This document shows, piece after piece, positions 3,214-33,307 of a DNA stretch of 33,327 nt. The DNA is taken from NCBI GenBank assembly GCA_027364875.1, contig DAHXON010000011.1, forward strand, positions 18,235 to 51,561. Direction: 5' to 3'. Position 1 is the stretch's first letter. Every line of letters begins with the position of its first letter. The stretch comes from Chloroflexota bacterium. GTDB taxonomy: Bacteria; Chloroflexota; Limnocylindria; Limnocylindrales; CSP1-4. The notes under the pieces were generated by a model, which was not told where the DNA came from, ran no database searches, and saw only the letters and a list, made by a program, of their open reading frames with translations. The position numbers and the translations under genes were made by a program.

Positions 3214-4358
3214 CGCCTCAGACCGAACAGGCCCTGGTCGATTCTGTTCCCGCCGATAGCCCCAACGGTGTGTCCGCCGGCACTCAGCCGGACGTCATGC
3301 TGGAGGTCCGGAACCTCAAGACCTACTACCCGATCTACGGCGGCATCTTGCGCCGCCGGATCGGCAGCGTCTTTGCCGTCGACGACGTCAGCCTGACCAT
3401 CTCGCGCGGCGAGAGGTACGGTCTGGTCGGCGAGTCCGGGTGCGGCAAGACGACGCTGGGGCGGACGATCCTGCGGCTGGAAAAGGCCACAGGGGGATCG
3501 GTGACGCTCGATGGGGAGGATCTGCTGGCGATACGGCGGTCGCAGCTCCACCGCATGCGCCGCAAGATGCAGATCATCTTCCAGGATCCGTATGGGTCCC
3601 TCAATCCACGCATGCCGGTGAGCGACATCATCGGCGAAGGGCTTATCGCTCAGGCCGATCGCGAGAACGGCTGGTCGAAGCGGGCGGTCCGCGACAAGCG
3701 CGTCGGCGACTACCTGGAGGCGGTCGGCCTGCGGCGCGACTACTCGCGCCGCTACCCACATGAGTTCTCGGGCGGCCAGCGACAACGCATCGGCATCGCC
3801 CGCGCCCTCTCGCTCGGCCCCGAATTCGTCGTCTGCGACGAACCGGTCTCAGCCCTGGACGTTTCGATCCAGTCGCAGATCCTGAACCTGCTCTCGGATC
3901 TGCGGACGCAATTCAACCTGACGTACTTGTTCATCGCCCACAACCTGTCCGTGGTGCAGTATTTCTGTGAGCGGATCGGCGTGATGTACCTGGGTAAGAT
4001 CGTCGAGGTCGCCGAGACGGACGTGCTGTACGGCAATCCGCTTCATCCCTATTCCGTCGCCTTGCTCTCGGCGATTCCGATCCCGGATCCGCGCCAGCGC
4101 AAGAAGCGCCTCGTTCTAAAAGGCGATGTTCCATCACCGGCCAATCCACCTTCGGGCTGCCGGTTCCACACCAGGTGCTGGCTTCGAGAACGGCTCGGAA
4201 ACCCGGCGGAATGCTCCACCACGGAGCCGCCGCTCCGGACATTCCAAAGCGGTCATCAGGTGGCTTGCCACTTCGCCGAGCAGGTTTCCGCCGACGTGGT
4301 TCAGGAGACCGCGGCGAAGCAGGACGTCATCGAGACGGCGGCCGCCGAGCCCGACTGA
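3210..4358 (+). CDS. Dipeptide/oligopeptide ABC transporter ATPase, DppF/OppF-like
   Basis: ATG at 3210 (ATGA overlap); [41 protein letters not shown] tail. Confidence 0.94.
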
Positions 4359-4426
4359 TCGACCTGGCGCTCTGCGTCGGCGAGGCGATTCGCGTCGCTC
4401 GTTCGCGCCGTCCGAAGACCGCTCCG

Positions 4427-4459
4427 CCCGGGCTTCTCGGAGCCCGAGATTGGCCCGGG
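4427..4459. other. Intergenic hairpin between ATPase gene and solute-binding protein gene
   Basis: CCCGGGC-tt-CTCGG-agc-CCGAG-attg-GCCCGGG; 7 bp + 5 bp stems, no U-tract. Confidence 0.35.
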
Positions 4460-4567
4460 AATGGCCTGGGAGCGGCGGGAGTGGCTTCCGGCCGGGCAGG
4501 TGGTTCGCGGCGGAGCCGCATCTGATTGGTGCGGGGATACCCTGAGCCTCTGGATCAAGGAGTTGCA

Positions 4568-6265: not shown

Positions 6266-6303
6266 CCCGACGAGCACCGTCATACCGCTGAGGGTCCACA
6301 CCA

Positions 6304-6366
6304 TTGATAAGCGGCTCTGTCGTTGTTGATAAGGCAATCATGACAACGGAGCCCATCTGGTATAGG
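6304..6366 (+). promoter_or_regulatory. Candidate promoter/operator upstream of second transporter operon
   Basis: Direct repeat TTGATAAG at 6304-6311 and 6326-6333 (22 bp apart), imperfect inverted repeat GGCTCtgtCGTTGT/ACAACGGAGCC (6313-6326/6343-6353), -10-like TATAGG at 6361. Confidence 0.3.
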
Positions 6367-6497
6367 GTTTTTACAGTTCTTCACCTTGCGATCCGGTGAT
6401 TTGCGATAGCCCTTCTCGGAGGAGGTCGCGCCTGCGCTGCCCAGCCTGGCGTCGTTTCGCAATCGGATGGTGATGTGCGCGAAGAAAGGGAGTGGAC

Positions 6498-8162: not shown

Positions 8163-8224
8163 CATCGGCACCTGGCCTCCCGGCCGGTTGAGCCGGTCGG
8201 CCGGCCTGTAACATTCGCGCGTTC

Positions 8225-8256
8225 GGTCCCCCGGGGTCGACAAACCCCGGGGGGCC
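8225..8256 (+). terminator. Strong intergenic hairpin after solute-binding protein gene (attenuator-like)
   Basis: GGTCCCCCGGGGT-cgacaa-ACCCCGGGGGGCC; 13-pair stem including one wobble, 6-nt loop, no strong U-tract. Confidence 0.55.
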
Positions 8257-8282
8257 ACTTTCACCAGGAGTCTTCGTACCAC

Positions 8283-9299
8283 GTGGCAAGGTTCATCGTT
8301 CGGCGCGTCATCGCTGCCGTACCGGTGCTGCTCGGGCTCTCGGTACTGCTGTTCATCTTCGTGCGCCTGCTTCCCGGCGGCCCCGCGTCCGCCATCCTGG
8401 GGCAGCACGCCACGCCGCAGCGCATCGCCGACGTCAACGAGGCCCTCGGGCTGACAAGGCCGCTGTACGTCCAGTACTTCGAGTACATCGGCCGCCTTCT
8501 GCATGGCGATTTCGGGTCGAGCTATGTCGACGGCACGAAGGTGGTCGACGTCTTCCTGCTCAGGTTTCCGTCCACGATCGAGCTGACGATGGGGGCGCTC
8601 TTCTTCGCCATCGGGCTGGGCATCCCGCTCGGCCGGATCGCGGCCAGACACAGCAACGGGCTGATCGACGGCATCGTCACCGTGATCTCGCTCTTCGGCA
8701 TCTCCATCCCGGTCTTCGTGCTCGGCTACACGCTCGCCTTCTTCTTCGGCGTGCAGCTGCACTGGCTACCGACCTTCGGTCTCGCCGATCCGACCCTCGG
8801 TGTCCCGGCGGTCACCAACTTCCCGATCATCGACGGCGCCCTCGCTTCGCTGCAGGGCGGCACGACGGCCCCGTTCGTCGATGCGATCGCGCATGTCATC
8901 CTGCCGTCCATCGCGCTGGGCTCGATCCCGCTGGCAGTGGTGACCCGTATCACGCGAGCCGCCGTCATCGAGGTGAGCAACGAGGACTACGTCCGAACGG
9001 CCCGCGCCAAGGGGCTCACCGAGAAGCGAGTGGACAATCGCCACATCATGCGCAACGCCTGGCTGCCCGTGACCACCGTCATCGGGCTCGAGGCGGGCGC
9101 CCTGCTAGCCGGCGCGGTGCTGACCGAGACGGTTTTCAACATCAATGGCGTTGGTTCGTGGGTGGTCGACTCCATCAGAAACCATGATTACGTCGTCGTC
9201 CAGTCGCTGGTCCTCATCTTCGCGGTCATCTTCATGGTCGTGAACCTGATCGTGGACATCGGCTATGCCTTCCTGAACCCGCGAATCAGGTACAGCTAG
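8283..9299 (+). CDS. ABC transporter permease, DppB/OppB-like
   Basis: GTG start; MARFIVRRVIAAVPVLLGLSVLLFIFVRLLPGG; EDYVRTARAKGLTEKRVDNRHIMRNAWLPV. Confidence 0.93.
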   Translation: MARFIVRRVIAAVPVLLGLSVLLFIFVRLLPGGPASAILGQHATPQRIADVNEALGLTRPLYVQYFEYIGRLLHGDFGSSYVDGTKVVDVFLLRFPSTIELTMGALFFAIGLGIPLGRIAARHSNGLIDGIVTVISLFGISIPVFVLGYTLAFFFGVQLHWLPTFGLADPTLGVPAVTNFPIIDGALASLQGGTTAPFVDAIAHVILPSIALGSIPLAVVTRITRAAVIEVSNEDYVRTARAKGLTEKRVDNRHIMRNAWLPVTTVIGLEAGALLAGAVLTETVFNINGVGSWVVDSIRNHDYVVVQSLVLIFAVIFMVVNLIVDIGYAFLNPRIRYS

Positions 9300-10187
9300 A
9301 TGACCGCAACCGCAGCCACCCTTGCCGCCACTCCGCGCACCAGCCGTGGGCTCTGGGGCGACGCCCTCCGCCGGCTGATGCGGAACGGCCCGGCGCTGGT
9401 CGGCCTCTTCTTCATCGCCGTATTCGTCATGGGCGCGATCCTGGCCCCCATCCTGTCCCCCTACGACCCTACGGTCGGCAAGCTCGCCGACGGGTATCAA
9501 TCGCCGAGCCTCGCTCACCTCATGGGCACGGACCAGCAGGGTCGTGACGAATTCACGCGGGTCCTCTACGGCGCGCGGATCAGCCTCTCGGTCGGCGTGG
9601 TGGCCGTGCTCTTCGGCCTCATCGGCGGAACCATCGTGGGCTCAATCGCGGGCGGCGCGGGTGGCAAGCTGGACGGCCTCCTCATGCGATTCGTGGACGT
9701 CATGCTCGCGGTTCCGGGCTTGCTCCTGGCAATCGTCCTCGTGTCGTGGCTCGGCCACGGCGAGCTGCAGATCATGCTGGCCGTCGGCATCTCCTATTCG
9801 CCGATGTTCGCGCGTCTGTTGCGAGGGAGCCTCCTGGCGCTGCGCGAGTCCGACTACGTCATCGCCGCCCGCTCCATGGGCGCCTCACCGGTGCGGATCC
9901 TCGTCCGGCACATGATGCCCAACGCCCTGACGCCGCTGATCGTCCAGGCCACCCTGTTCGCGGCGACGGCGATCATCGACGTCGCGGGCCTTGGGTTCCT
10001 GGGTCTTGGCCCGGGCGATCCGCGCATCGCCGAATGGGGGGAGATGCTGACGGACGCCTCCAGCTACCTGCAGAACTACCCCTACCTGATCTTCTTCCCG
10101 GGCGCCGCGATCGTGATAAGCGCCATCGGGTTCAACCTCCTGGGCGACGGGCTGCGCGAGGCTCTCGACCCACGCCTGAAGCGATAG
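9300..10187 (+). CDS. ABC transporter permease, DppC/OppC-like
   Basis: [33 protein letters not shown]; terminal [14 protein letters not shown]. Confidence 0.93.
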
Positions 10188-10191
10188 CCAG

Positions 10192-11274
10192 ATGCATCTT
10201 CTTTCGGTCAGCGACCTGGTCGTCCGGTTCCGCACGCACGACGGCACCGTCCACGCCGTGAATGGCGTCTCCTTCGACCTGGACGAAGGCGAGACGCTCG
10301 GGCTGGTCGGCGAGTCCGGCTGCGGCAAATCCGTCACTAACCTCGCCGTCATGCGCCTGCTCCCCAGGCCGGCGGGCCACATCGAGCGCGGCTCGGCCGT
10401 GTTCGAGGGTCAAGACCTTTTCGAGATCGACGAGTCCGCGATGCGCGACATCCGCGGCAAGGACATCGCCATGATCTTCCAGGACCCGATGACCAGCCTG
10501 AACCCGGTCCTCCGGATCGAAGAGCAGATGGTCGAGACGATCCGGGCCCATCGGAAGGTGTCGACGAAGGACGCCCGCGAACGTGCGATCGAGCTGCTCG
10601 GCATGGTCGGCATTCCGCAGCCCGAGAAGCGGCTGCGCGACTACCCGCACCAATTCAGCGGCGGCATGCGGCAGCGCGTCATGATCGCCATGGCCCTCGC
10701 GCTCGAGCCGAAGCTGCTCATAGCAGACGAGCCGACGACCGCCCTCGACGTCACGATCCAGGCCCAGGTTCTGGAGCTCCTCTCCCGGCTCGCCGCCGAG
10801 CGCAACACCGCGGTCATCCTGATCACCCACGACCTGGGCGTCGTGGCCGGCATGACCCGGCGCGTAAACGTCATGTACGCGGGGTTCGTGGTCGAGACGG
10901 CCGCCACGTCGGACCTGTTCGCCCGGCCGCTCCACCCGTACACGATCGGCCTGCTCCATTCGATGCCCCGCCTCGACGCGGAAGAAGGCGAGCCACTCGT
11001 CCCGATCGAGGGTGTCCCGCCGGACCTTCGCCAGGCGCCCGTGGGCTGCCCCTTCGCGCCGCGCTGCGCCTGGGCAATCGACAGGTGCTGGGCCGACATG
11101 CCGGCGCTCGGTGCGATGGACGGCGTCGTAGCAATCGAGACCACCGGTGCCAATCCCACTCACCGGGTTGCCTGCTGGAACGTCCCGACTCCGGATGAGG
11201 CCAGGCTCGCCCATCCCGACCGGCCGGGCTTCCACGCGGCGCCGGCACCGACCGTCGCGGAGATTGCCCGATGA
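10192..11274 (+). CDS. Dipeptide/oligopeptide ABC transporter ATPase, DppD/OppD-like
   Basis: [35 protein letters not shown]-terminal [14 protein letters not shown]. Confidence 0.94.
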
Positions 11275-12461
11275 GCGCATCGACCAACGGCCCCGATAGC
11301 CCGGTCGCAGCCGTTGACGCCGGCCGCGGCGTCGCGGCTCAGGCCGACGCCACCGTCCAGGCCGCAGGGGAGGCACGACCGCTCGTGGAGGTCACAGACC
11401 TCCGGATGTACTTCCCGATCACGAGCGGTGTCCTCATCGACCGGCACATCGGCGACATCAAGGCCGTGGACGGCGTCAGCTTCTCCATCCGCAAGGGCGA
11501 GACCGTGGGCCTGGTCGGGGAGTCGGGCTGCGGCAAGAGCACCGTCGGGCGGACGCTCCTGCGTCTCTACAAGCCCACCGGCGGGAGCATCGTCTTCGAC
11601 GGCCAGCCGATCACGGACATAGGCGCGGCGCAAATGCGCCCGATCCGGCGCCGCATGCAAATGATCTTCCAGGACCCCTATGCGAGCCTGAACCCCCGAA
11701 TGACGGCGGCCGGCATCGTGTCCGAGCCGATGGAGATCCACAAATACGGCTCCAAGTCGGAGCGCCGCGAGCGCGTTCGGTATCTCCTCAAGACGGTCGG
11801 GCTCAACCCGGACTACGGCGACCGCTACCCGCACGAGTTCAGCGGCGGCCAGCGCCAGCGCATCGGCGTCGCCCGCGCCCTGGCGCTCCATCCGGACCTT
11901 ATCGTCGCCGACGAGCCGATCAGCGCCCTGGACGTATCGATCCAGGCGCAGATCATCAACCTCCTCGAGCGGCTCCAGGGCGAGTTCGGGCTGACGTACC
12001 TGTTCATCGCCCACGACCTGTCTGTGGTGCGGCACATCAGCGACCGGATAGCGGTGATGTACCTGGGCAGGCTCGTCGAGACGGCGCCGTCGCGCGACCT
12101 CTACGACAGGCCGATCCACCCGTACACCGTGGCCCTGCTGTCCGCGGTGCCGATCCCGGATCCGGCCATCGAGGCCCGGCGCCGGCGCATCATCCTGACA
12201 GGGGACGTGCCCAGCCCGGCGAACCCACCGTCCGGCTGCCACTTCCACACGCGCTGCTGGCTGCGGGCGAGGCTCGGCAACCCGGAGCGATGCGCGGTGG
12301 AGGTCCCGGTGCTACGCGACATCGAGAGCGGCCACCAGGTCTCCTGCCACTTCGCCGAAGAGGTCGAGGGGTCCCCGGAGCAGAAGCTTCAGCTCGCCTC
12401 GACCGGAACGGCCCCCGCGGCCCGAGGCCCGGTGCCACCGGCCCAGCCCCAGGCATACTGA
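11271..12461 (+). CDS. Dipeptide/oligopeptide ABC transporter ATPase, DppF/OppF-like
   Basis: ATGA overlap; [41 protein letters not shown] tail. Confidence 0.94.
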
Positions 12462-21277: not shown

Positions 21278-22150
21278 TCAGGCGTTGCGCAGCAGCGAGG
21301 GGTAGAACACCGACTTACCGGCGGCCTTCTTGACCCGGCGCCAATCCTCGAGGATGACGACCGCCTCGTTGGCCGCGGCGATCGACCGCTCCTCGGCGCC
21401 GTTGTCGCCGAAGGCGTTGGTTGCCCGGTTGGCGACCGCGCCGAGCACCGCGCCGCTTCTCATTCCGAACAGGCGCGACAGCACGAAGAGCGCCGAGCAT
21501 TCCATCTCCAGGCAGGCGACGCCCGCCTTTCGGAGATCGTCGATGACCCCGTCAGCGGCCGACTGCCAGAACCCGCCGGTCACCGGCCGCTCCTGGCCCA
21601 GGTAGAACGAGCCGACGCTCGCGACAATGCCCAGGTGGTAGCGGAAGCCGAGCCTCTCGCAGGCCTCAACGAGGGCCATGTAGACCTCGGGGTCCGCGAA
21701 GGCGGGATGCTCCGGCGGCAGGTAGCGGTCCGTCATGCCGTCCCGGCGGACCGCGGCCACCGGCACGATGAGATCGCCGAGGGCGATTTCCGGGCGGAGC
21801 GCGCCACACGTCCCGACGCGGATGATCGTCTCGCCGCCGATCACCGCGAACTCGTGCGTGGCGATCTCCAGGCTCGGAGCGCCGACGCCGCTCGAGATGG
21901 CGCCGATTTCCACGCCCTTGTACGTCCCGCGGGCCGACCGGAACTCGCGGTGGAACGCCAGCTCCACGCCGCCATCCCATTTCTGGCGCATGAGCTCAAC
22001 ACGTCCCGGATCGCCCGGCATAAGGATCGTCGAGGGTATCTGGCCGGCCGAAAGATGAAGGTGATACTGTGCCCCCGCTTCGTTGGTGGGCGCGTCGGCG
22101 CGACGGTTGCCGGAACTGGTCGAAGACGTGATCGCCGGGTCTGCTGCCAT
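21278..22150 (-). CDS. udp: Uridine phosphorylase-like nucleoside phosphorylase
   Basis: ATG at 22150 preceded by GAGGAG; ILMPGDPGRVELM, SSGVGAPSLEIATHEF, IIRVGTCGALRPEIALGDLIV, CLEMECSALFVLS. Confidence 0.87.
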   Translation of the reverse strand: MAADPAITSSTSSGNRRADAPTNEAGAQYHLHLSAGQIPSTILMPGDPGRVELMRQKWDGGVELAFHREFRSARGTYKGVEIGAISSGVGAPSLEIATHEFAVIGGETIIRVGTCGALRPEIALGDLIVPVAAVRRDGMTDRYLPPEHPAFADPEVYMALVEACERLGFRYHLGIVASVGSFYLGQERPVTGGFWQSAADGVIDDLRKAGVACLEMECSALFVLSRLFGMRSGAVLGAVANRATNAFGDNGAEERSIAAANEAVVILEDWRRVKKAAGKSVFYPSLLRNA

Positions 22151-22276: not shown

Positions 22277-22759
22277 GTGGCCGGTTCGGGAATCGAATTG
22301 ATCGATCGAGCCGAGGCGGCGCGCCGGCTGCCCGAATTCGACCGGCTGCTCGAGGCGGCTCTGCTTGCCCAGTCGCGGGCCCGAGCGCCGTACTCGCACT
22401 TCAACGTTGGGGCAGCCGTGCTGTGTGGCGGCGGCGCGATCCACGCCGGCTGCAACGTGGAATCAGCGTCCTACGGCGCCACGATCTGCGCCGAGCGGAG
22501 CGCAGTGGTGGGCGCGGTGGCTGCGGGGGAGACGGCGATCCGCGTCTGCGTCGTGGTCACGCCGACGGCCGATCCGTCCAGCCCGTGCGGGATCTGCCGG
22601 CAGCTGCTCGCCGAGTTCGGGCCGGAGATGGAGATCTACGCGGCCTCGAGCAAGGGCGACGGAGTCTACGCGGCGCGGCTCGCCGACCTTCTGCCGCTGG
22701 CGTTCTGGGCTAAGAACCTCGACGCTGCGGAAGAGTCGAGCGGTGGGGTGGGAGCGTGA
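22277..22759 (+). CDS. cdd: Cytidine deaminase
   Basis: APYSHFNVGAAV, GCNVESASYGATICAERSAV, PCGICRQLLAEF zinc-binding/catalytic motifs. Confidence 0.93.
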   Translation: MAGSGIELIDRAEAARRLPEFDRLLEAALLAQSRARAPYSHFNVGAAVLCGGGAIHAGCNVESASYGATICAERSAVVGAVAAGETAIRVCVVVTPTADPSSPCGICRQLLAEFGPEMEIYAASSKGDGVYAARLADLLPLAFWAKNLDAAEESSGGVGA

Positions 22760-23619
22760 GCGCCGCACGCGCCTTCGAGCTCGGGCGTGAGATCTCGCCG
22801 GCCGAGCAAGCGAGCCATCTGGGCGAACTCGTGGCGGCGGTGCGGGCTCGGACCGCCCTGGAGCCTCGAGTCGGACTCGTCCTCGGCTCCGGCCTGGGGG
22901 GCCTCGCCGACGAGATGCAGGTCGAAATGGCAATTCCGTTCGGCGATCTGCCCGGCTGGCCGCCGGCGACGGCCCCGGGACACGCGGGCCGGCTTCTCTT
23001 CGGGCGGCTCGCGGGCGTGCCCGCGGTCATCCAGCAGGGCCGGTTCCATCTCTACGAAGGCCACTCGGCGGGGTTTGTGGTTCAACCGGTCCTGCTCATG
23101 GGGCTGCTCGGGGCCGGCATCGTCGTCCTCACGAACGCCGCCGGCGGTGTGAATCCCGCGTTCGGGGCCGGGACGCTCATGGTCATCCACGACCACCTGA
23201 ACCTGACCGGGCGCCACCCGCTCATCGGCTCCAACGACCCGGCCATCGGAGAGCGCTTCCCGGACATGACCCGCGTCTGGGACCCGGACCTGGGGGCGCG
23301 GCTCCTCACGGCATCCGAGGTTGAGAACGTGCCTCTCGCGTCCGGCGTGTACGCGTGCCTGACCGGCCCCAGCTACGAAACCCCCGCCGAGGTCAGGATG
23401 CTCGCCACGCTGGGCGCCGACGCCGTCGGTATGTCCACCGTGCCCGAGGCGATCGCCGCCCACTGGGCCGGGATGCGGGTCTGCGGCATCTCGCTCGTGA
23501 CGAACCCCGGAGCGGGCATCACCGGCGCGCAACTGAGCCACGCCGAGGTGCTGGCGGCGGCGGACGCCGCCGGGCCGCGCCTGGCGCGGGTTATTGCCCG
23601 ATTCGTGGCCGAGCTGTAG
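22756..23619 (+). CDS. punA: Purine nucleoside phosphorylase (PunA family)
   Basis: GTGA overlap; GLVLGSGLGGLAD, GRFHLYEGHSAGFVVQPVLLM, LTNAAGGVNP, GPSYETPAEVRML, GADAVGMSTVPEAIAA. Confidence 0.93.
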   Translation: MSAARAFELGREISPAEQASHLGELVAAVRARTALEPRVGLVLGSGLGGLADEMQVEMAIPFGDLPGWPPATAPGHAGRLLFGRLAGVPAVIQQGRFHLYEGHSAGFVVQPVLLMGLLGAGIVVLTNAAGGVNPAFGAGTLMVIHDHLNLTGRHPLIGSNDPAIGERFPDMTRVWDPDLGARLLTASEVENVPLASGVYACLTGPSYETPAEVRMLATLGADAVGMSTVPEAIAAHWAGMRVCGISLVTNPGAGITGAQLSHAEVLAAADAAGPRLARVIARFVAEL

Positions 23620-24235: not shown

Positions 24236-24400
24236 CTCTCGTTACGGCGGGTGAGAGGAAGTTAGCGGCGGCCCCTTCACTGCCCATTACCTGACGCTTA
24301 TCTGCGGATGCGTTCGAGTGCCCGCCAATCGCGATCGAGCGCGGATGGAGGCGGTATGCTGGCCGCCGCTGACCGCTCAAACGTCACCAGGGAGGCTGCG

Positions 24401-25489
24401 GTGCTTGCCAGAGCTGGATCCGTCGGTCGAGTTCGCGCCGCCGGCATCGCGCTTGCGGCGATCCTGGGCGCGGCCGCATGCTCGGGTGGAACCGGAACGG
24501 CTACCACGCCTCCGGCTACGAGCGGCCTGGCCTCCATTGCGGCCCCGGCCACCGGCACTCCCGGGCCGTCTTGCGCCGGTTCGATCGTGCCGAGCTCGAG
24601 TGCCGCGGCGACCCAGCCGGCCACCCCGGCGCCCAACCTCACCGTCCGACCCGGTACCGTGGTCGCCTGGGGCGACGACAGCTCAAACCAGATCGACGTC
24701 CCGGAAGGCCTCTCCAACGTCATCGCCGTGGCCGCCGGCGACGAGTTCAGCGTCGCGCTCAAGGCCGACGGCAGCGTCGTCGCCTGGGGCGGCGAGAACC
24801 TGGAAACCCAGGTCCCGGCCGGCGTCAAGAACGTCAAGTCGATCGCCGCCGGAAGCGCGTTCGTCATCGCGCTCGAATCCGACGGCAGCATCGTTGGCTG
24901 GGGCGACAACTCGAATGGCCAGCTCGACGTTCCGGCCAACGCCAAAGGAGCGATCCAGATATCCGCGGCCGGAGGCCACGGCCTCGCCCTGACGAGCGGC
25001 GGAATGGTGGTCGCCTGGGGTTCGAACGCGAATGGCGAAAGCGACGTCCCGGCCGGGCTCGAGAACGTCATCGAGGTTTCGGCCGGCTACGACTTCAGCC
25101 TGGCGCTGCTGCAGGACGGGACCGTGGTCGCGTGGGGCGACAAGAATCCAACCGACCAGTCCAGCGGCGTGGCCAAAGTTCCGGCCGGTCTCAAGGACGT
25201 CAGCGCCGTATCGGCCGGCTACTACCACAACCTCGCCCTCAAATCGGACGGAAGCGTAGTGGCCTGGGGATCCAACGAGAACGGCCAGAGCACGGTTCCC
25301 AAACCGCTCGCGAACGTGATCGCGGTGGCGGCCGGCGGCGACTTCAGCCTCGCTCTGACGTCGGACGGTCATGTGGTTGCCTGGGGCGGCAACGGCGCGG
25401 GCGAGAGCACGGTGCCGAAATCGCTGGCGAACGTCGAAGCGATCGACGCGGGCGGCAGCCACGCTCTAGCGTTGGTCTCCGGCTCGTAG
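24401..25489 (+). CDS. RCC1-repeat (seven-bladed propeller) putative lipoprotein
   Basis: GTG start at 24401 with AGGGAGG upstream; hydrophobic signal AAGIALAAILGAAAC; seven VVAWG...VPxxLxNVxxVxAGxxFSLALxxDGS repeats. Confidence 0.85.
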   Translation: MLARAGSVGRVRAAGIALAAILGAAACSGGTGTATTPPATSGLASIAAPATGTPGPSCAGSIVPSSSAAATQPATPAPNLTVRPGTVVAWGDDSSNQIDVPEGLSNVIAVAAGDEFSVALKADGSVVAWGGENLETQVPAGVKNVKSIAAGSAFVIALESDGSIVGWGDNSNGQLDVPANAKGAIQISAAGGHGLALTSGGMVVAWGSNANGESDVPAGLENVIEVSAGYDFSLALLQDGTVVAWGDKNPTDQSSGVAKVPAGLKDVSAVSAGYYHNLALKSDGSVVAWGSNENGQSTVPKPLANVIAVAAGGDFSLALTSDGHVVAWGGNGAGESTVPKSLANVEAIDAGGSHALALVSGS

Positions 25490-25802: not shown

Positions 25803-25831
25803 TTGACACACACGCCTCGGCGCGCCATAGT
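25803..25831 (+). promoter_or_regulatory. Sigma70-type promoter for the regulator/BMC operon
   Basis: TTGACA (25803-25808), exact 17-bp spacer, CATAGT (25826-25831), 36 bp before the regulator ATG. Confidence 0.55.
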
Positions 25832-25866
25832 TGGCAACATATGAGCAATGGTGTGCACATTTGAGC

Positions 25867-26856
25867 ATGGCTACCAGGACAGCGGCTCTCGGACAGGACG
25901 AGCTGGGTCTGGAGACTCGGCTGATGCTTCGCGCCGCCCAGCTCTACTACCGGCTTCACCTGACCCAGGATCAGGTGGGCGAGCGATTGGGTGTCAGCCG
26001 GTTCAAGGTCGGCCGCCTTCTCGATCGTGCCTTGCGTGAGTCGGCAGTGAGGATCGAGATCGTCCATCCAGACATCCGGCTCGTCGAACTCGAGGACGGC
26101 CTCGTCGCCCGGTTCGGCCTGCGGAGTGCCGTGGTCGTGGACGTCCCGCCGACTGCCTCCGAACAGGACCAGGAACTGCTCGCGCGCGAGCGCGTCGCCA
26201 CCGCGGCGGCCGCGCAGCTGACCGCCTTGAGGCCGACGGGTGCCATCGGCGTCTCGTGGGGCCGCACGATGCTCGAAGTCGCCGCGCACTTGCGCCCCGG
26301 CTGGACCGCCGCGTCGGAGATCGTCCAGCTGAACGGCGCGATGTCCCGTTCCGCCCGCCCCACCCGGGCCCAGGAGGTGGTGGAGCAGTTCGGACTCACC
26401 AGCGGCGCCGCGATCCAGCTGATGCCGGCCCCGGCGATCGTCGGCTCTCCGGAGCTACGCGAAGCCCTCGAACAGGACCCATCCATCGGCGAAACGCTGG
26501 CCGCGGCTCGGGCCGCCGAGACGGCCGTGTTCAGCATGGGCGTGCTCGGCACGGAGAGCGTCCACGTCGCGTCGGGGTTCATCGGCGACCCGGATCTCGC
26601 CGCGCTTGGCGAGGCCGGCGCGGTGGGTGACGTGCTCGGCCGATTCCTCGCCATCGACGGACGCATCGCCCTGCCGTCGCTCGACCGGCGGACGATCGGG
26701 CTGCCGCTCGAAGAGCTCCGGGCCAAGACGCTGACCGTGGGAGTTGCCGCGGGGCCGGGCCGTGGGTCCATCGCCCTGGCCGCCCTGAGGTCCGGCTGCA
26801 TCAACGTCATGGTTACGGACGAGGAGACGGCCACGTGGGTGATCGACCATGAGTGA
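25867..26856 (+). CDS. SorC/DeoR(B. subtilis)-type transcriptional regulator
   Basis: N-terminal HTH LRAAQLYYRLHLTQDQVGERLGVSRFKVGRLLDRA; C-terminal sugar-binding domain motifs IGVSWGRTMLEVA, GSPELREAL, GRFLAIDGR, VGVAAGPGRGSIALAALRSGCINVMVTDEETA. Confidence 0.9.
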   Translation: MATRTAALGQDELGLETRLMLRAAQLYYRLHLTQDQVGERLGVSRFKVGRLLDRALRESAVRIEIVHPDIRLVELEDGLVARFGLRSAVVVDVPPTASEQDQELLARERVATAAAAQLTALRPTGAIGVSWGRTMLEVAAHLRPGWTAASEIVQLNGAMSRSARPTRAQEVVEQFGLTSGAAIQLMPAPAIVGSPELREALEQDPSIGETLAAARAAETAVFSMGVLGTESVHVASGFIGDPDLAALGEAGAVGDVLGRFLAIDGRIALPSLDRRTIGLPLEELRAKTLTVGVAAGPGRGSIALAALRSGCINVMVTDEETATWVIDHE

Positions 26857-27514
26857 CCCACGCGATCGGGCAAACCCCTCCGCTGACGAGATCCGCGACA
26901 TCGTGCGCGGGATCGTGGACGCGGCCCTTGCCGGGGACGCGGCGGCGACGAGCCCCACGGCCTCCACGGCGCCCACGTCCACGGGCCCCAAGGCGCCGGC
27001 GAGCGCCCCCGCGCCCGGAACCACCCAGTCCGGCGCCGAGCGCGAAACCATCGCCATCGGCGCGGACCACGGCGGCTCCGCGATGAAGGATGCGATCGGG
27101 AAGATGCTCACCGAGGCCGGCTACGCGGTCCGCGACTGCGGCACCCACGGGACCGAGCCGGTCGACTACCCCGACATCGCCCACGACGTCGCCCGCCTGG
27201 TCGCGGACGGAACGTGCAAGTGGGGGATCATCCTCGACGGCGCCGGGATCGGATCGTGCATGGTCGCCAACAAGGTGCCGGGCGTCCGCGCGGCCCTGTG
27301 CCACGACCTATCGAGCGCCCGGAACAGCCGCGAGCACAACCACGCCAACGTGCTCACGCTCGGCGCCCGGTTCATCGGCGAGGGGCTTGCGATCGAGATC
27401 GTGCGGGCGTGGCTCGGCACGGCCTGGGCACCCGGACGTCATGCGGCCCGGGTAGACAAGATCACGGCGGTGGAACGCCGCTACATGGCTGCGACCGGTG
27501 AGGTTCGACGATGA
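26849..27514 (+). CDS. rpiB: Ribose-5-phosphate isomerase B with N-terminal extension (candidate BMC encapsulation peptide)
   Basis: [73 protein letters not shown]; extra N-terminal helix [19 protein letters not shown] plus Ala/Pro/Thr linker. Confidence 0.93.
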
Positions 27515-28407
27515 CGGAAGCGAAATACAACCGCGACGAGCTCGTCGAGCGGATCACGAGCCAGGTGATGGCGGTGCTGAGCGGGTCCGCCGCTGCCGCA
27601 ACCGCGGGCGGCGCCAATGGGCCCTGCGCAACCTGCATGGGGGCCTGCGCGGCCCAGTGCGCGGTCAGAGTCCGCGACGTCGTGGCCGGAGGCGCCTCCC
27701 GGGTCGAATACCACGGCCAGGCAGCGGACGTCCCCACCGACCTGGCCCGCTACATCGATCACACGCTTCTCCGGCCGGACGCCGTCGTCGGCGACATCGA
27801 CAAGCTCTGCGCGGAGGCGGCCGAGTACCGGTTCGCCGCCGTATGCGTCAACCCGACCTGGGTTCACCGGGCGGCGGAGAAGCTGCGCGACTCGGACGTG
27901 GGGGTCGCGTCGGTGGTCGGTTTCCCGTTCGGCGCCACGCCCACCGAGATCAAAGTCTTCGAGGCCCGGCGGGCGATCCGCGACGGAGCCCGCGAGATCG
28001 ACATGGTCATCAACATCGGGGCGCTCAAGAGCGGCATGCAGGCGCAGGTCCGAGAGGACATCGCCCGCGTCGCCGAGGCCTGCCACGAGGCCGGCGCCAT
28101 CTGCAAGGTGATCATCGAGACCGGCCTCCTCACGGACCCGGAGAAGGTAATCGCCTGCCGGCTGGCCCAGCAGGCCAAAGCCGATTTCGTCAAGACGTCC
28201 ACCGGGTATGCAAAGGGCGGAGCGACCGTCTTCGACGTGGCGCTGATGCGCGAGACCGTCGGCCCGAAGATGGGCGTCAAGGCCTCCGGCGGCATTCGCA
28301 CCGCCGAGGATGTCCAGGACATGATCGCAGCCGGCGCGACCCGCATCGGGGCGTCCGCCGGCGTCAAGATCGTCACGGGAGAGAAGGGCGGACATGGCCA
28401 ATATTGA
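27511..28407 (+). CDS. deoC: Deoxyribose-phosphate aldolase with N-terminal helix and four-Cys linker (DeoC1)
   Basis: DERA motifs [66 protein letters not shown]-terminal [18 protein letters not shown] and [12 protein letters not shown]. Confidence 0.94.
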
Positions 28408-29023
28408 CCTTCGGGCGTACGTCTTCCTCGACAGTCTCCAGGCCCAGTACGCCGCGTTTCTCGGGACGGTCGCGCAGGGCTTCCTGCCGCTCGCCGGCGA
28501 CGCGTCGCTGGAGATCGAGATCTCGCCCGGCATAGAGATCAACCGGCTGACCGACGTCGCGCTCAAGTCCACGACCGTCAAGCCCGGCATGCAGATCATC
28601 GAGCGCTACTACGGCATGCTCGAGATCCATTCGCCCTCGCAGGCCGAGGTCCGGGCCGCCGGCGCGGCGATCCTGGCCGACATCGGCCTGGCCGAGACGG
28701 ACCGGATCAAGCCCCGCGTCCTGTCCTCGCAGATCATCCGCCGGATCGACGACCACCAGGCCCAGCTCATCAACCGCACGCGCCACGGCCAGATGCTGAT
28801 TCCCGGCCAGACGCTGTACGTGCTCGAGCTGGAACCGGCCGCCTACGCCGCCCTGGCGGCAAATGAGGCCGAGAAGGCAGCGCACATCAATATCCTCGAA
28901 GTCCGGTCCTTCGGCTCGATGGGTCGCATCTACCTCGGCGGCGAGGCGCGCGACATCGACGTCGGCTGGCGCGCGGCGCTGGCGGCGATCGAAGGACTCG
29001 AAGGACGAGACGCGAAGGCATAA
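28394..29023 (+). CDS. BMC shell protein, BMC-T type (tandem BMC domains)
   Basis: 209 aa; BMC-like segments [56 protein letters not shown] and [59 protein letters not shown]. Confidence 0.78.
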
Positions 29024-29085
29024 CGGCAGCGACAGCGGCGGCGATCGAAAGGTCGAACGGCCGAAACCAGAAGGAGACACGCTCG

Positions 29086-29394
29086 ATGGCAGAAGCGCTT
29101 GGAATGATCGAAGCCCGCGGCTTCGCGGCAGTGGTCGAGGCGGCCGACGCGATGGTCAAAGCGGCCAAGGTCGAGCTGGTCAGCTACGAGAAGACCGGCG
29201 GCGGGTACGTGACCGCCGGGGTGCGGGGCGACGTTGCCGCCGTCAAGGCCGCGGTCGACGCCGGCGTCCGAAACGCCGCGAAGGTCGGCGAAGTCGTCGC
29301 CAGCCACGTGATCGCCCGGCCGCACGTCAACGTGGACCTCGTCCTGCCGCTCGGCCGGCTCGAGGAGGCCAAGGCAGAGGTGGGCCAGAAGTAG
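29086..29394 (+). CDS. BMC shell protein, BMC-H type (PduA/CcmK-like hexamer)
   Basis: [86 protein letters not shown]. Confidence 0.96.
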
Positions 29395-29419
29395 CCGCGC
29401 AGCGTGGCCACGCAGAGTG

Positions 29420-29448
29420 GCGGCGCGCCGGCCTCTCCGGCGCGCCGC
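29420..29448 (+). terminator. Strong hairpin between BMC-H and BMC-P genes (attenuator or mRNA stabiliser)
   Basis: GCGGCGCGCCGG-cctct-CCGGCGCGCCGC, perfect 12-bp stem, no U-tract, 26 nt after the BMC-H stop. Confidence 0.55.
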
Positions 29449-29467
29449 TCGATCAGGCGGTGACGAG

Positions 29468-29755
29468 ATGCTCCTTGGACGGGTTACCGGGACCGTTGTC
29501 GCGAGTCGCAAAGAGCCGCTCATGGAGGGCTGGAAGCTCCTGGTCGTGCGCGCGCTCGATGCCGAGAACCACGAGGCCGGCGGCTACGTCGTGGCCGCGG
29601 ACACCGTCGGCGCGGGCGTGGGCGAGGTCGTCCTCTACGCCACCGGCAGCTCTGCCCGCCAGACTGAGACCACCCGCGACCGGCCGTGCGACGCCGTGAT
29701 CATGGCCATCGTGGACACGTGGGAGATCGGCGGGACGGAGGTCTACCGCAAGTAG
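29468..29755 (+). CDS. BMC vertex protein, BMC-P (EutN/CcmL family)
   Basis: [31 protein letters not shown]...[28 protein letters not shown]...[12 protein letters not shown]. Confidence 0.94.
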
Positions 29756-29767
29756 CGGTCGAACACC

Positions 29768-31237
29768 ATGAGCGACCTCGACGAACGCGAAATCACCGAG
29801 ATCATCGAACTGGTCCGGCGCCGCGTCTCGGCGGCCGGCGAGGCCCGGCCGGGCGAGGGTCTGCGAGCCGGGGCCGAACTGGCCACGGCCGCTGCCGCCG
29901 GCGCCGAGCTCGGCGACGGCATCCACGCCACGGTCGATGAAGCCGTCGCCGCGGCCGCGCGGGCGTTCCAGCAGTTCCAGGTCCAGGGCCTGGCCGGCCG
30001 GAAAGTCATCATCGAGGCGGTTCGGCGCTCCATGCTGGATCACTCGGAGCAGCTCGCGCGGATGGCCCACCAGGAGACGCACCTGGGCCGGGTCGAGGAC
30101 AAAATCGTCAAGAATCGCCTCGTTTCGTCCAAGGCGCCCGGACCCGAAGACCTCGAAGTCCAGGCCACCACCGGCGACGCCGGGATGATGGTCACAGAGT
30201 TCGCGCCGTTCGGAGTCGTTGCGGCCATCACGCCGGTCACCAACCCGACCTCGACGATCATCAACAACACGATCAGCATCGTCTCGGCCGGCAACGCGGT
30301 CGTCTTCAACGCTCACCCGAGCGCGAAGCGATGCTCCGCGGAGACGATCCGGCTCATCACCCTGGCGCTCGTCGGCGCGGGCGGGCCTCCGAATCTCGTG
30401 TCGGCTGCCGCCACCACGACGATCGACACGGCCCGCGCCCTGATGACCCACCCGGGCGTCCGGGTACTGCTCGTCACCGGCGGTCCGGCGGTCGTGCGCG
30501 AAGCGCTCAAGTCCTACAAGAGAGCAATCACCGCCGGGCCCGGGAACCCGCCCGCGGTCGTGGACGCGACGGCCGACGTCGAGCGCGCCGGCCGCGACAT
30601 CGTCCGCGGCGCCTCGTTCGACAACAACATCGTCTGCATCGACGAGAAGCTCGTCCTGGTCGTGGACACCGTTGCGGACCGGCTGATACGGTCGATGACC
30701 GGGAACGGCGCGTACCTGCTCAAAGAGCACGAGCTGCGCCGCTTGGAACGCGTCGTCTTCAAGGAACTGGGCCAGCCCGGAAAACCCGGTGTCATGAACC
30801 CGGCCTGGATCGGCCAGGACGCGGCCAGAATGCTCGCCGAGATCGGCGTCCAGACCGATACGCCGCCGCGACTCCTCATCGCGGACGTGCCGCGCGACCA
30901 CAGCCTCGTCTGGACCGAACAGATGATGCCGCTGCTGCCGGTGGTCCGGATGAGCACCGTCGATCAGGCGATCGACCTGGCGGTCCGCGCCGAGCACGGC
31001 TTCCGGCACACCGCGTCGATCCACTCCACCAACGTCGACACCATCACGAGGATGGCCCGCGCGATGAACTGCAGCATCTTCGTGACCAACGGGCCCAACT
31101 TCGCCGGCCTCGGCGAGGGCGGCGAAGGTTTCACTTCCTTCTCTATCGCCAGCCCGTCCGGCGACGGTCTGACCCGGCCGCGGACCTTCTCGCGCGAGCG
31201 GCGGATCACCGTCGTCGGCGCGCTCCGGATCGTTTGA
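29768..31237 (+). CDS. CoA-acylating aldehyde dehydrogenase (EutE/PduP-like) with N-terminal candidate encapsulation peptide
   Basis: ITPVTNPTSTIINNTISIVSAGNAVVFNAHPSAK, LVTGGPAVV, GPGNPPAVVD, GASFDNNIVCIDEK (catalytic Cys), FVTNGPNFAGLGEGGEGFTSFSIA; N-terminal DEREITEIIELVRRRVSAAG. Confidence 0.94.
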   Translation: MSDLDEREITEIIELVRRRVSAAGEARPGEGLRAGAELATAAAAGAELGDGIHATVDEAVAAAARAFQQFQVQGLAGRKVIIEAVRRSMLDHSEQLARMAHQETHLGRVEDKIVKNRLVSSKAPGPEDLEVQATTGDAGMMVTEFAPFGVVAAITPVTNPTSTIINNTISIVSAGNAVVFNAHPSAKRCSAETIRLITLALVGAGGPPNLVSAAATTTIDTARALMTHPGVRVLLVTGGPAVVREALKSYKRAITAGPGNPPAVVDATADVERAGRDIVRGASFDNNIVCIDEKLVLVVDTVADRLIRSMTGNGAYLLKEHELRRLERVVFKELGQPGKPGVMNPAWIGQDAARMLAEIGVQTDTPPRLLIADVPRDHSLVWTEQMMPLLPVVRMSTVDQAIDLAVRAEHGFRHTASIHSTNVDTITRMARAMNCSIFVTNGPNFAGLGEGGEGFTSFSIASPSGDGLTRPRTFSRERRITVVGALRIV

Positions 31238-31239
31238 CG

Positions 31240-31752
31240 ATGCCAGGCCTCGCCTTCGAACCGGCACTCGCGCTCGTCGAGCTCGATTCCATCGCGGCCG
31301 GCATCGCCACCGGCGACGCCATGGCCAAGCGCGCGCCCATCGACATCCTGCGAGCGGGGACCGTGCATCCGGGCAAGTACCTGGTGCTCGTCGGCGGCAC
31401 CGTTGGAGACGTCGAAGAGGCGCTGGCTGCGGGCCGGGAAGTAGGTGCAGCCTCGATCCTCGACGTCGTCTTCCTGCCCAACGCCCACCCGGAGCTCATC
31501 GCCGCGATCGGCGGAACGTGCCGGGAGGCGGCGGGGGAGGCTCTCGGCGTCATCGAGACCGCAACCGTCGCCGCGATCATCGAGGCCGCCGACGCGGGGC
31601 TCAAGGGCGCCAGGGTGCGCCTTGTCGAGCTGCGCCTCGCCGACGATCTGGGCGGCAAGGGATACCTGCTGTTCGACGGGCCGGTCAGCGAGGTCGAGGC
31701 CGCCGTCGAGATCGGCGTCGACCGGCTCGCCGGCTCGCTCGGCCTGGCGTAG
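31240..31752 (+). CDS. BMC shell protein, BMC-T type (tandem BMC domains)
   Basis: PALALVELDSIAAGIATGDAMAKRAPIDILRAGTVHPGKYLVLVGGTVGDVEEALAAG and ALGVIETATVAAIIEAADAGLKGARVRLVELRLADDLGGKGYLLFDGPVSEVEAAVEIG. Confidence 0.93.
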   Translation: MPGLAFEPALALVELDSIAAGIATGDAMAKRAPIDILRAGTVHPGKYLVLVGGTVGDVEEALAAGREVGAASILDVVFLPNAHPELIAAIGGTCREAAGEALGVIETATVAAIIEAADAGLKGARVRLVELRLADDLGGKGYLLFDGPVSEVEAAVEIGVDRLAGSLGLA

Positions 31753-31755
31753 CGG

Positions 31756-31920
31756 GTGATTCCGCAGCTACATTCTGAGATGGCGGTGAACCTGGCCGCG
31801 GACGCGCAGTTCCGCGACCGGGTCCGGACCTCGGCGGCGGCGCGGGTCGCGGCGGCCACGTCGGCGGCTTCGGCCCGGACGTCGCCGTCCGCGTCGGCGC
31901 CCCGGCGCAGGGGCAGGTAG
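31756..31920 (+). CDS. Small ORF (54 codons, GTG start; alternative ATG at 31780), unknown function
   Basis: Fills the BMC-T to BMC-P gap; (V)IPQLHSEMAVNLAADAQFRDRVRTSAAARVAAATSAASARTSPSASAPRRRGR, TAG at 31918; below the supplied ORF cutoff. Confidence 0.35.
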   Translation: MIPQLHSEMAVNLAADAQFRDRVRTSAAARVAAATSAASARTSPSASAPRRRGR

Positions 31921-31924
31921 AGGA

Positions 31925-32209
31925 ATGCAGCTCGCCCGCGTGATCGGCACCGTCGTCGCCACCGTCAAGGCGCCCGGGCTCGAAGGCGTGAAGCTCCTGG
32001 TGATCCAGCCGCTCGACCGCTCGCTCAAGCCGGTGGGCGGCCAGCTCGTGGCCGCGGACGCGGTCCACATGGCGGGGCCCGGGGAGCTCGTCTACTTCGT
32101 GGCCGCCCGCGAAGCGGCCCAGGCAATGCCGGACCCGTTCGTGCCCGTCGACCACGCGATCGTCGGCATAGTAGACGCCGTCTCCGAACTGCCGGGGCAG
32201 AAGCCATGA
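31925..32209 (+). CDS. BMC vertex protein, BMC-P (EutN/CcmL family)
   Basis: MQLARVIGTVVATVKAPGLEGVKLLVIQPLD...GGQLVAADAVHMAGPGELVYFVAAREA...HAIVGIVDAV. Confidence 0.94.
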   Translation: MQLARVIGTVVATVKAPGLEGVKLLVIQPLDRSLKPVGGQLVAADAVHMAGPGELVYFVAAREAAQAMPDPFVPVDHAIVGIVDAVSELPGQKP

Positions 32210-32481
32210 AGCTCGGCCGGGTGGTGGGCACCGTCGTCTCCACGATCAACGCGCCCGACTTCGACAACCGCACGCTCCTCCTCTGCGATCTCGTGGATCC
32301 GGCCGGCCGGCCCGCGGGCGGCTATCTCATCGCCGTCGACACCGTCGGCGCGGGTGCGGGGGAGATGGTCCTGATCCTCGACGAGGGCAACTCCGCTCGA
32401 CAGGTTCTGAACGCGCCCGGCGCCCCGATCCGGACGCTCGTCGTGGGTATCGTCGACGCGGTCACGGACGGGTCGTTGTAG
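32206..32481 (+). CDS. BMC vertex protein, BMC-P (EutN/CcmL family)
   Basis: ATGA overlap; MKLGRVVGTVVSTINAPDFDNRTLLLCDLVD...GGYLIAVDTVGAGAGEMVLILDEGNSARQ...VVGIVDAV. Confidence 0.95.
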   Translation: MKLGRVVGTVVSTINAPDFDNRTLLLCDLVDPAGRPAGGYLIAVDTVGAGAGEMVLILDEGNSARQVLNAPGAPIRTLVVGIVDAVTDGSL

Positions 32482-32545
32482 GCTGGGCGGCAAGGATCCG
32501 GGGCTGGCGATCTCATTGCCAGCGATGCCGGCTCCGGGGAGAGAA

Positions 32546-33307
32546 ATGGAACCAATGCTCAAGGCCCGGCTCGCGAATCGCGCGCCCCTGGATCTCACGC
32601 TGCTCGACGAGAAGGCCCTGATGGGCGTGATCGACCACTCCCTGCTCAAACCGGAGCTCACGCGAGCCGACGTCGCGGCCGGCTGCGACCTGGCGATGGA
32701 GTACGAGACGGCAACGGTGTGCTGCCGGCCGGCCGACCTGGTGTTCGTGGTCGGGCGTCTGCGGGGGTCGCCGGTTGGGCCGACCACGGTGGTCGGTTTT
32801 CCGCACGGCGCGAACGTGCCCGCCATCAAGGAGCGGGAGGCCGTCGTGGCAGTGGACGACGGCGCGGTCGAGCTCGACGTCGTGATCAACATCGGGGCGC
32901 TGCGCGCCGGCGAGCTGAGCTACGTCCGGGACGAGCTCGCGAGCCTCATCTACGCGGTCGCTCCCACGCCGGTCAAAGTGATCCTCGAGACGGCGTACCT
33001 GACCCCGGAGGAAGTGGAAACGGGCTGTCGCGTGGCCGTGGAGGCGCGGGCCGCGTTCGTCAAGAACGGAACGGGCTTCTCGCCGCGCGGCGCCGAGCCG
33101 GCCGAGATCGCCCTGATGCGGCGAGTGGTGGGGGACCGTGTGGGGGTCAAGGCCGCTCATGGCGTTCGAACCCTCGACGCCCTGCTGGCGGTCCTCGCCG
33201 CAGGCGCATGCCGCTGCGGGGCCACGGCCACTGCCTCCATCGCGGCGGAGGGGCGGGCTCGCGGCCGGGAAGCCGTTGCCGCCGCCCTGGCGGCTCGCGC
33301 CAGGTAG
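32546..33307 (+). CDS. Second, divergent deoxyribose-phosphate aldolase-family protein (DeoC2)
   Basis: VIDHSLLKPELT, VVGFPHGAN, ELDVVINIGALRAGE, VILETAYLTPEE, AFVKNGTGFSPRGA (Schiff-base Lys context), GVKAAHGVRT; start ATG 32546. Confidence 0.9.
   Translation: MEPMLKARLANRAPLDLTLLDEKALMGVIDHSLLKPELTRADVAAGCDLAMEYETATVCCRPADLVFVVGRLRGSPVGPTTVVGFPHGANVPAIKEREAVVAVDDGAVELDVVINIGALRAGELSYVRDELASLIYAVAPTPVKVILETAYLTPEEVETGCRVAVEARAAFVKNGTGFSPRGAEPAEIALMRRVVGDRVGVKAAHGVRTLDALLAVLAAGACRCGATATASIAAEGRARGREAVAAALAARAR

What the first reader, a model, noticed from the sequence alone, without database searches (positions are those of the whole stretch)
26849..33307. Compact microcompartment operon built around RpiB, two DeoC aldolases and a CoA-acylating aldehyde dehydrogenase
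Seen: ten recognisable genes, mostly overlapping or tightly spaced, encode 1 BMC-H, 2 BMC-T, 3 BMC-P, RpiB, DeoC, DeoC2 and an EutE/PduP-like ALDH. Known: DeoC cleaves 2-deoxyribose-5-P to glyceraldehyde-3-P and acetaldehyde, and PduP/EutE-type ALDHs convert acetaldehyde to acetyl-CoA. DeoC/RpiB BMC loci are known (sugar-phosphate-utilising type; Atribacteria), as I recall. Inference: the compartment confines acetaldehyde from deoxyribose-5-P cleavage. The class is probably described, but its biochemistry is, to my knowledge, little tested, and this gene arrangement may be a new subtype.
Basis: partly seen in the sequence, partly recalled or inferred. Interest (0 to 1): 0.85.

Follow-up and report, generated by a model that had tools for sequence, protein, structure and literature searches.

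The report
Microcompartment operon for DNA-sugar breakdown
This is a known kind of bacterial protein organelle, inserted beside a resident nucleoside-salvage gene cluster and probably used to burn the deoxyribose of scavenged DNA; its signature enzyme, labelled ribose-5-phosphate isomerase, lacks the usual catalytic cysteine here and in every related organelle examined.

Summary
Window 25867-32481 is an operon of regulator, RpiB, DeoC, CcmP-like BMC-T(dp), BMC-H, BMC-P, CoA-acylating ALDH, BMC-T(s) and two BMC-P. It belongs to the published SPU (sugar-phosphate utilisation) microcompartments. The same core gene order occurs in 25 of 80 public loci from at least three phyla, so it is not a new subtype.

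Three corrections or additions:
(1) The second aldolase (DeoC2) is not part of the compartment. It is a genus-core gene present in 21 of 21 genus genomes, 18 of them without a detected shell gene. The operon is an insertion beside it.
(2) The insertion site is a resident nucleoside cluster (Bmp-type transporter, cytidine deaminase, two nucleoside phosphorylases). The operon carries its own DeoR/SorC-type regulator, promoter and conserved tandem operator. This supports deoxynucleoside sugar as substrate.
(3) The SPU RpiB has Asp in place of the catalytic Cys, and Ala in place of the proton-shuttling Thr, with the ring-opening and phosphate-binding residues kept. Asp is invariant in 17/17 shell-anchored and 80/80 further loci. 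The same genome keeps a second, normal Cys-type RpiB. I found no description of this.

What RpiB does inside SPU compartments is therefore open and testable.

The parts
25803..25831 (+). sigma-70-like promoter: TTGACA, 17 bp, CATAGT
   Evidence: TTGACA is invariant upstream of the regulator in 7 of 7 loci aligned; coordinates
25836..25867 (+). tandem operator-like repeat AACATATGAGCA / ACATTTGAGCA, 20 bp apart
   Evidence: first repeat conserved in all 7 aligned loci in variant form, both repeats in most of those whose aligned stretch reaches that far; function inferred
25867..26856 (+). SorC/DeoR-family regulator with sugar-binding domain (PF04198)
   Evidence: PF04198 4e-52; best NCBIfam model is DeoR NF053881, 213 bits, below its cut-off of 420; travels with the BMC block
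26849..27514 (+). SPU-type RpiB: N-terminal amphipathic helix and linker (about 1-65), then RpiB domain with Asp in place of the catalytic Cys ('DGAGIGS' for 'CGTGIG')
   Evidence: PF02502; alignment to solved RpiB; Asp in 17/17 and 80/80 loci; helix moment exceeded by 0.9% of shuffles
27511..28407 (+). DeoC1, the cargo deoxyribose-5-phosphate aldolase: N-terminal helix, Cys-rich linker [12 protein letters not shown], aldolase domain with both active-site Lys motifs ([14 protein letters not shown])
   Evidence: TIGR00126 281 bits; PDB aldolases 7e-76; linker conservation
28394..29023 (+). BMC-T(dp), CcmP-like double-layer trimer shell protein
   Evidence: NF053796 339.3 bits, cut-off 340; PDB CcmP 4ht5 1.6e-85
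29086..29394 (+). BMC-H hexameric shell protein
   Evidence: PF00936 99 bits
29468..29755 (+). BMC-P1 pentameric vertex protein
   Evidence: PF03319 103 bits
29768..31237 (+). CoA-acylating aldehyde dehydrogenase of the EutE/PduP kind, with N-terminal helix; catalytic Cys retained (NNIVC)
   Evidence: NF011927 608 bits, cut-off 403; PDB 5jfl 2e-126
31240..31752 (+). BMC-T(s) trimer, cut short by an in-frame TAG at 31750-31752 relative to all eight aligned relatives
   Evidence: PF00936 two domains; comparison of nine loci
31925..32209 (+). BMC-P2
   Evidence: PF03319 91 bits
32206..32481 (+). BMC-P3, last gene of the inserted block
   Evidence: PF03319 85 bits; block boundary from congeners
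32555..33307 (+). DeoC2: resident genus-core aldolase without N-terminal extension, adjoining but not part of the BMC operon (upstream starts possible)
   Evidence: present in 21/21 genomes of the genus, 18 without detected shell gene; empty-site gene order
22756..23619 (+). purine-nucleoside phosphorylase of the resident nucleoside cluster
   Evidence: NF006054 337 bits, cut-off 218
22277..22759 (+). cytidine deaminase of the resident cluster
   Evidence: TIGR01354 124.5 bits, cut-off 113.65
21278..22150 (-). uridine-phosphorylase-like protein (PNP_UDP_1)
   Evidence: TIGR01718 231 bits, below its cut-off of 280; PF01048
15543..20588 (+). ABC importer: Bmp/PnrA-type binding protein, ATPase, two permeases; probably nucleosides
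   Evidence: PF02608, PF00005, PF02653 twice

Best explanation
An SPU-type metabolosome operon acquired as a block and placed next to the host's own nucleoside-salvage genes. Deoxynucleosides are imported, deaminated and phosphorolysed; the deoxyribose-1-phosphate is turned into deoxyribose-5-phosphate, which induces the operon by binding the DeoR-type repressor and enters the shell. [quoted passage not shown] Shown here: the genes, their families and active-site residues, the N-terminal extensions, the conserved promoter/operator, the neighbouring nucleoside genes and the empty-site comparison. Inferred: encapsulation, substrate, inducer and direction. RpiB rides along as a conserved but non-standard partner. 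It lacks the Cys base (Asp instead) and the Thr shuttle (Ala instead), but keeps the ring-opening His and the phosphate-binding Arg. My preferred guess is that it works on the same pool of sugar phosphates, either with Asp as the base or as a ring-opener that feeds the open-chain aldehyde to DeoC1.
For: Families and curated cut-offs; solved homologues. DeoC1 keeps [14 protein letters not shown] and EIDMVIN; the ALDH keeps its catalytic Cys. The regulator's closest model is DeoR, with promoter and tandem operator conserved in relatives. Nucleoside importer, Cdd, PNP and uridine-phosphorylase-like genes lie directly upstream. In three relatives of another genus the BMC operon instead sits beside Cdd, PNP and thymidine phosphorylase; in another, beside an ABC importer and a ribokinase. 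Published SPU function agrees (PMC8217296, PMC4207490). Amphipathic N-termini on RpiB and, less clearly, ALDH and DeoC1, but not DeoC2.
Against: The neighbouring nucleoside cluster is resident and also present without the BMC, so adjacency in this genus alone does not prove function. This genome has no PduL, Pta or PYNP_C match, so how CoA is recycled and how thymidine is handled are unknown; it is about 90% complete. The phosphopentomutase step was not pinned to one gene. One relative carries an importer, a dehydrogenase and an FGGY pentulose-type kinase upstream, which hints at another sugar there. The DeoC1 helix score is not significant (17% of shuffles reach it). The BMC-T(s) is truncated in this assembly. 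Expression and shells have not been seen.
Confidence: 0.75

Rival explanations
1. The compartment runs in the reverse or buffering direction: aldehyde made from acetyl-CoA (an NADH sink) is condensed with glyceraldehyde-3-phosphate by DeoC into deoxyribose-5-phosphate for storage, as proposed for Atribacteria.
For: Proposed by Nobu et al. 2016 as cited in PMC6281690; aldolase and ALDH reactions are reversible; no alcohol dehydrogenase or PduL in the locus.
Against: A DeoR-type regulator and nucleoside import and phosphorolysis genes around the operon point to breakdown.
Confidence: 0.1
2. RpiB and DeoC1 act on one path for ribose: RpiB interconverts ribose- and ribulose-5-phosphate and DeoC1 cleaves ribose-5-phosphate to glycolaldehyde plus glyceraldehyde-3-phosphate, with ALDH making glycolyl-CoA.
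For: Would explain why RpiB is always paired with DeoC in SPU loci (PMC8217296); nucleoside and ribose-type importers also supply ribose.
Against: DeoC1 scores far above the deoxyribose-phosphate aldolase cut-off (281 against 117 bits) with standard active-site motifs; RpiB lacks the usual isomerase base.
Confidence: 0.08
3. The locus is decaying or non-functional in this strain because BMC-T(s) is truncated by a TAG codon.
For: In-frame TAG at 31750-31752 where all eight aligned relatives read through to a conserved tail.
Against: Both BMC domains are essentially complete before the stop; all other genes are intact; one base in a metagenome assembly may be an error.
Confidence: 0.07

Closest known systems
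SPU (sugar phosphate utilisation) BMC loci, Axen 2014 and Sutter 2021 (PMC4207490, PMC8217296)
   Same: pfam01791 aldolase, pfam02502 isomerase, ALDH, BMC-H, BMC-T and BMC-P triplet; CcmP-like BMC-T(dp), as reported for SPU2 and SPU3; proposed DNA-sugar catabolism
   Different: No PduL or PduS here; own DeoR-type regulator; insertion beside a nucleoside cluster. The RpiB Cys-to-Asp replacement is not mentioned in the passages read.
HO BMC of Haliangium ochraceum
   Same: BMC-P triplet, CcmP-like BMC-T(dp) (PDB 5v74), possible nucleic acid catabolism (PMC8217296)
   Different: HO main loci lack the RpiB/DeoC pair as defining enzymes
RpiB and LacAB isomerases
   Same: Fold, phosphate-binding Arg, ring-opening His and Asp-His pair
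   Different: SPU RpiB has Asp where RpiB and LacB have the catalytic Cys, and Ala for Thr. The LacA half of LacAB also has Asp at that place, and the second pocket of LacAB is reported vacant (PMC3755991).
Ethanolamine (EUT) metabolosome
   Same: EutE-like ALDH, acetaldehyde intermediate, EutM- and EutN-like shell proteins
   Different: No ethanolamine ammonia-lyase in the window; aldehyde source is an aldolase

Membership tests
SPU BMC locus | DeoC-type pfam01791 aldolase and RpiB-type pfam02502 protein encoded together | tested here: met
SPU BMC locus | BMC-H, BMC-T and BMC-P shell genes in the same locus | tested here: met
SPU BMC locus | CoA-acylating ALDH near the acetaldehyde branch | tested here: met
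   NF011927 608 bits; tree placement against the published ALDH tree not made
SPU BMC locus | Encapsulation peptides on cargo enzymes | tested here: inconclusive
   N-terminal extensions present; amphipathicity clear for RpiB (0.9% of shuffles), weaker for ALDH (8.6%) and DeoC1 (17%)
SPU BMC locus | Assignment to one of the seven published subtypes | not testable with these tools
   subtype tables are in supplements that could not be opened; CcmP-like BMC-T(dp) suggests SPU2 or SPU3
SPU BMC locus | Deoxyribose-5-phosphate to acetyl-CoA activity in a shell | not testable with these tools
   needs enzymes and electron microscopy
Ribose-5-phosphate isomerase B (catalytic sense) | Sequence score above equivalog cut-off | tested here: met
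   TIGR01120 143.4 against 138.65 bits
Ribose-5-phosphate isomerase B (catalytic sense) | Catalytic base Cys (E. coli Cys66) and Thr shuttle | tested here: not met
   Asp and Ala instead; Cys-to-Ser/Ala mutants of characterised RpiB are inactive (PMC4783025); M. tuberculosis RpiB uses a Glu base instead
Deoxyribose-phosphate aldolase (DeoC1) | Schiff-base Lys motif VKTSTG, second Lys motif and Asp motif | tested here: met
Beta-carboxysome CcmP (28394-29023) | NCBIfam equivalog cut-off | tested here: not met
   339.3 against 340 bits; a CcmP-like relative
EUT metabolosome | Ethanolamine ammonia-lyase EutBC in the locus | tested here: not met
   no such gene among the operon genes; locus is cut at the contig end

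The most novel reading that the evidence does not exclude
The RpiB that defines SPU compartments is not a ribose-5-phosphate isomerase at all. With the enolisation base and the proton shuttle both replaced but ring-opening and phosphate-binding residues kept, it is a dedicated partner of the aldolase, for example a ring-opener (anomerase) that hands open-chain deoxyribose-5-phosphate to DeoC, or a LacA-like half-enzyme.
Probability: 0.35. Interest if true: 0.72.

Novelty: new member of a known kind. Interest (0 to 1): 0.5.

Why it matters
SPU is one of the most widespread microcompartment types (over 280 loci in 26 phyla in 2021), yet why an isomerase is encapsulated with a deoxyribose-phosphate aldolase has no good answer: deoxyribose-5-phosphate has no 2-hydroxyl and cannot be a normal aldose-ketose isomerase substrate. 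The invariant loss of the catalytic Cys in every SPU RpiB examined, with a normal Cys-type RpiB kept elsewhere in the same genome, turns that into a sharp question answerable with one purified protein. The empty-site comparison shows the operon moving as a block into a nucleoside-salvage locus, which is independent support for the DNA-sugar hypothesis.

Tried and rejected
Two-aldolase subtype: rejected, DeoC2 is resident. Strict Fe-S or Zn site in the DeoC1 linker: left open, because the four-Cys motif (CxxCx3Cx3C and close variants) is complete in only 27 of 72 loci, though present in the Bryobacterales/Solibacter loci listed. D-type RpiB free of compartments: first suggested by 25 of 80 loci without detected shell genes nearby, some on short contigs, but rejected after 8 of 9 such genomes tested proved to carry BMC-P genes elsewhere. 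Fe-S pore in BMC-T(s): the pore position reads His (or Gln), not Cys, in the loci read. Structure prediction was not run, because sequence identity to solved RpiB and aldolases already fixes the residue positions and the tool returns no coordinates for the Cys cluster. Supplementary subtype tables of the BMC catalog could not be read. The RpiB tree has weak deep support; it shows loci of several phyla mixed around the window's clade but was not used for more than that.
Full report
Observation. The shell genes pass PF00936 or PF03319, except the first BMC-T, which is recognised through CcmP (NCBIfam 339 bits; PDB 4ht5 1.6e-85). The operon starts earlier than stated: a SorC/DeoR-family regulator at 25867-26856 overlaps RpiB by 8 nt. 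Its upstream region holds TTGACA-17-CATAGT and a tandem ACATWTGAGCA repeat. TTGACA and the first repeat are conserved upstream of the regulator in all seven loci aligned, and the second repeat in most of those whose aligned stretch reaches that far. The window ends where the contig ends.

What belongs to the unit. The genome's relatives settle the boundaries. In the genus, DeoC2 is found in 21 of 21 genomes, while the CcmP-like shell gene was found in only 3 of them. In congeners without the compartment the order is importer - uridine-phosphorylase-like - Cdd - PNP - SSB - RCC1-like - DeoC2 - PurA - PurD, in whole or part (L090, L091, L094, L095, L098). In the window the block from regulator to BMC-P3 lies between RCC1-like and DeoC2; in G004 (L050/L100) it lies between SSB and RCC1-like. 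The block is therefore an insertion into the locus, and DeoC2 is the host's own aldolase. DeoC2 has no N-terminal extension. In other genera of the family the same block sits elsewhere: beside Cdd, PNP and thymidine phosphorylase (L037-L039), beside an ABC importer and a ribokinase (L042), or with an ABC importer, a dehydrogenase and an FGGY kinase (L043). At four-fold sites the BMC genes of the window and another genus (L039: 0.54-0.78) are at least about as alike as housekeeping genes within the genus (0.41-0.56; the regulator, at 0.43, is an exception), which fits transfer between genera. The RpiB tree places loci of Actinomycetota, Acidobacteriota and Chloroflexota in one mixed group (deep support weak).

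Is it a new subtype. No. Of 80 public loci fetched with SPU RpiB, 25 show exactly RpiB - DeoC - BMC-T(dp) - BMC-H - BMC-P - ALDH - BMC-T(s) - BMC-P - BMC-P (counted from the order strings), from Chloroflexota, Actinomycetota and Acidobacteriota records. The catalog of Sutter et al. reports over 280 SPU loci in 26 phyla with seven subtypes and CcmP-like BMC-T(dp) in SPU2 and SPU3 (PMC8217296). The exact subtype could not be assigned.

Function. The enzymes fit deoxyribose-5-phosphate to glyceraldehyde-3-phosphate plus acetaldehyde, then acetyl-CoA. The surroundings add support: a Bmp/PnrA-type importer, cytidine deaminase, purine-nucleoside phosphorylase and a uridine-phosphorylase-like protein lie directly upstream, and the regulator's closest curated model is DeoR (below its cut-off). 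Missing pieces: no PduL, Pta or PYNP_C match in this about 90% complete genome, so CoA recycling and thymidine phosphorolysis are not explained, and the phosphopentomutase was not pinned to one gene. A reverse, storage-type role was proposed for Atribacteria, and in one Atribacteria isolate with such a gene cluster no compartments were visible by electron microscopy (PMC7736352). In subseafloor Atribacteria the BMC and aldolase genes are transcribed (PMC7542362).

The RpiB anomaly. Against solved RpiB the window protein reads DGAGIGS where E. coli reads CGTGVGI: Asp for Cys66, Ala for Thr68. Cys66 is the base that moves the proton between C1 and C2 and Thr the shuttle between O1 and O2; Cys-to-Ser or Cys-to-Ala mutants are inactive, and M. 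tuberculosis RpiB, the noted exception, uses Glu75 (PMC3755991, PMC4783025). The ring-opening His (REHN), the Asp-His pair and the phosphate-binding Arg (GRHxxRV) are kept. Asp is present in 17 of 17 RpiBs from loci chosen by their shell protein, hence independent of RpiB, and in 80 of 80 loci from the genome collection (those were found with RpiB words, so partly biased). In 400 Chloroflexota genomes the DNA word for this motif occurs in 22, and all 22 carry BMC shell genes, against 11 of the 378 others (genomes are related, so the Fisher value of 2e-28 overstates independence; at least one of the 11, G071, has the Asp motif in a form the word misses). In Acidobacteria (Bryobacterales/Solibacter) the Asp-type RpiB and DeoC sit apart from the shell genes, followed in the loci with clear gene calls by a GAF/PP2C-like and a LysA-like gene, yet 8 of 9 such genomes tested have BMC-P genes elsewhere. 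The window's genome holds a second RpiB with the normal Cys beside a transaldolase-like frame. LacA, the half of LacAB without the catalytic Cys, has Asp at the same place. Whether SPU RpiB uses Asp as base, only opens rings, or does something else cannot be told from sequence. The library searches found no paper that describes this; the library lacks most subscription papers.

Verdict. A well-preserved new member of a known compartment type, with better contextual support for nucleoside sugar as substrate, one corrected boundary, and one apparently undescribed family-wide feature that makes the role of the signature enzyme testable.

Noticed in passing
window 31750-31752: In-frame TAG ends BMC-T(s) where eight relatives have a sense codon and a conserved tail (RVIxQLHxEMxxNLxADxRF); the window's frame stays open after it. 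Could be a strain mutation or an assembly error.
   Followed up: partly
window 32555-33307; L060: Resident DeoC2 has His for Gly in the KAAGG loop only in the two genomes where the BMC block lies beside it; the other 19 congeners keep Gly. Two cases only.
   Followed up: partly
window 27511-27680; L130, L139, L160-L162, L167, L174-L176: Cys-rich linker CxxCx3Cx3C between N-terminal helix and aldolase domain of SPU DeoC; intact in the Bryobacterales/Solibacter loci listed, partly degraded elsewhere (27 of 72 complete, counting close variants). Metal site possible, untested.
   Followed up: partly
L130 6412-10929, L139, L160-L162, L167: In Acidobacteria, Asp-type RpiB and DeoC are followed by a GAF/PP2C-like and a LysA-like gene, far from the shell genes; the last two were named by eye from their sequence.
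   Followed up: partly
L101 (G216): A family member with two adjacent CcmP-like genes and one BMC-P, at 40-45% identity to the window protein: apparently another BMC type.
   Followed up: no
L043 590-7818: Family member with DeoR-like regulator, ribose-type ABC importer, Zn-dehydrogenase and FGGY pentulose-type kinase directly upstream of the BMC block, suggesting another sugar feeds the same compartment.
   Followed up: partly
window 24356-25489: RCC1-repeat protein between SSB and the BMC block; on the other side of the block in G004.
   Followed up: no
window 40-12461: Two oligopeptide-type ABC importer gene sets in tandem, each with permeases, ATPases and a binding protein.
   Followed up: no
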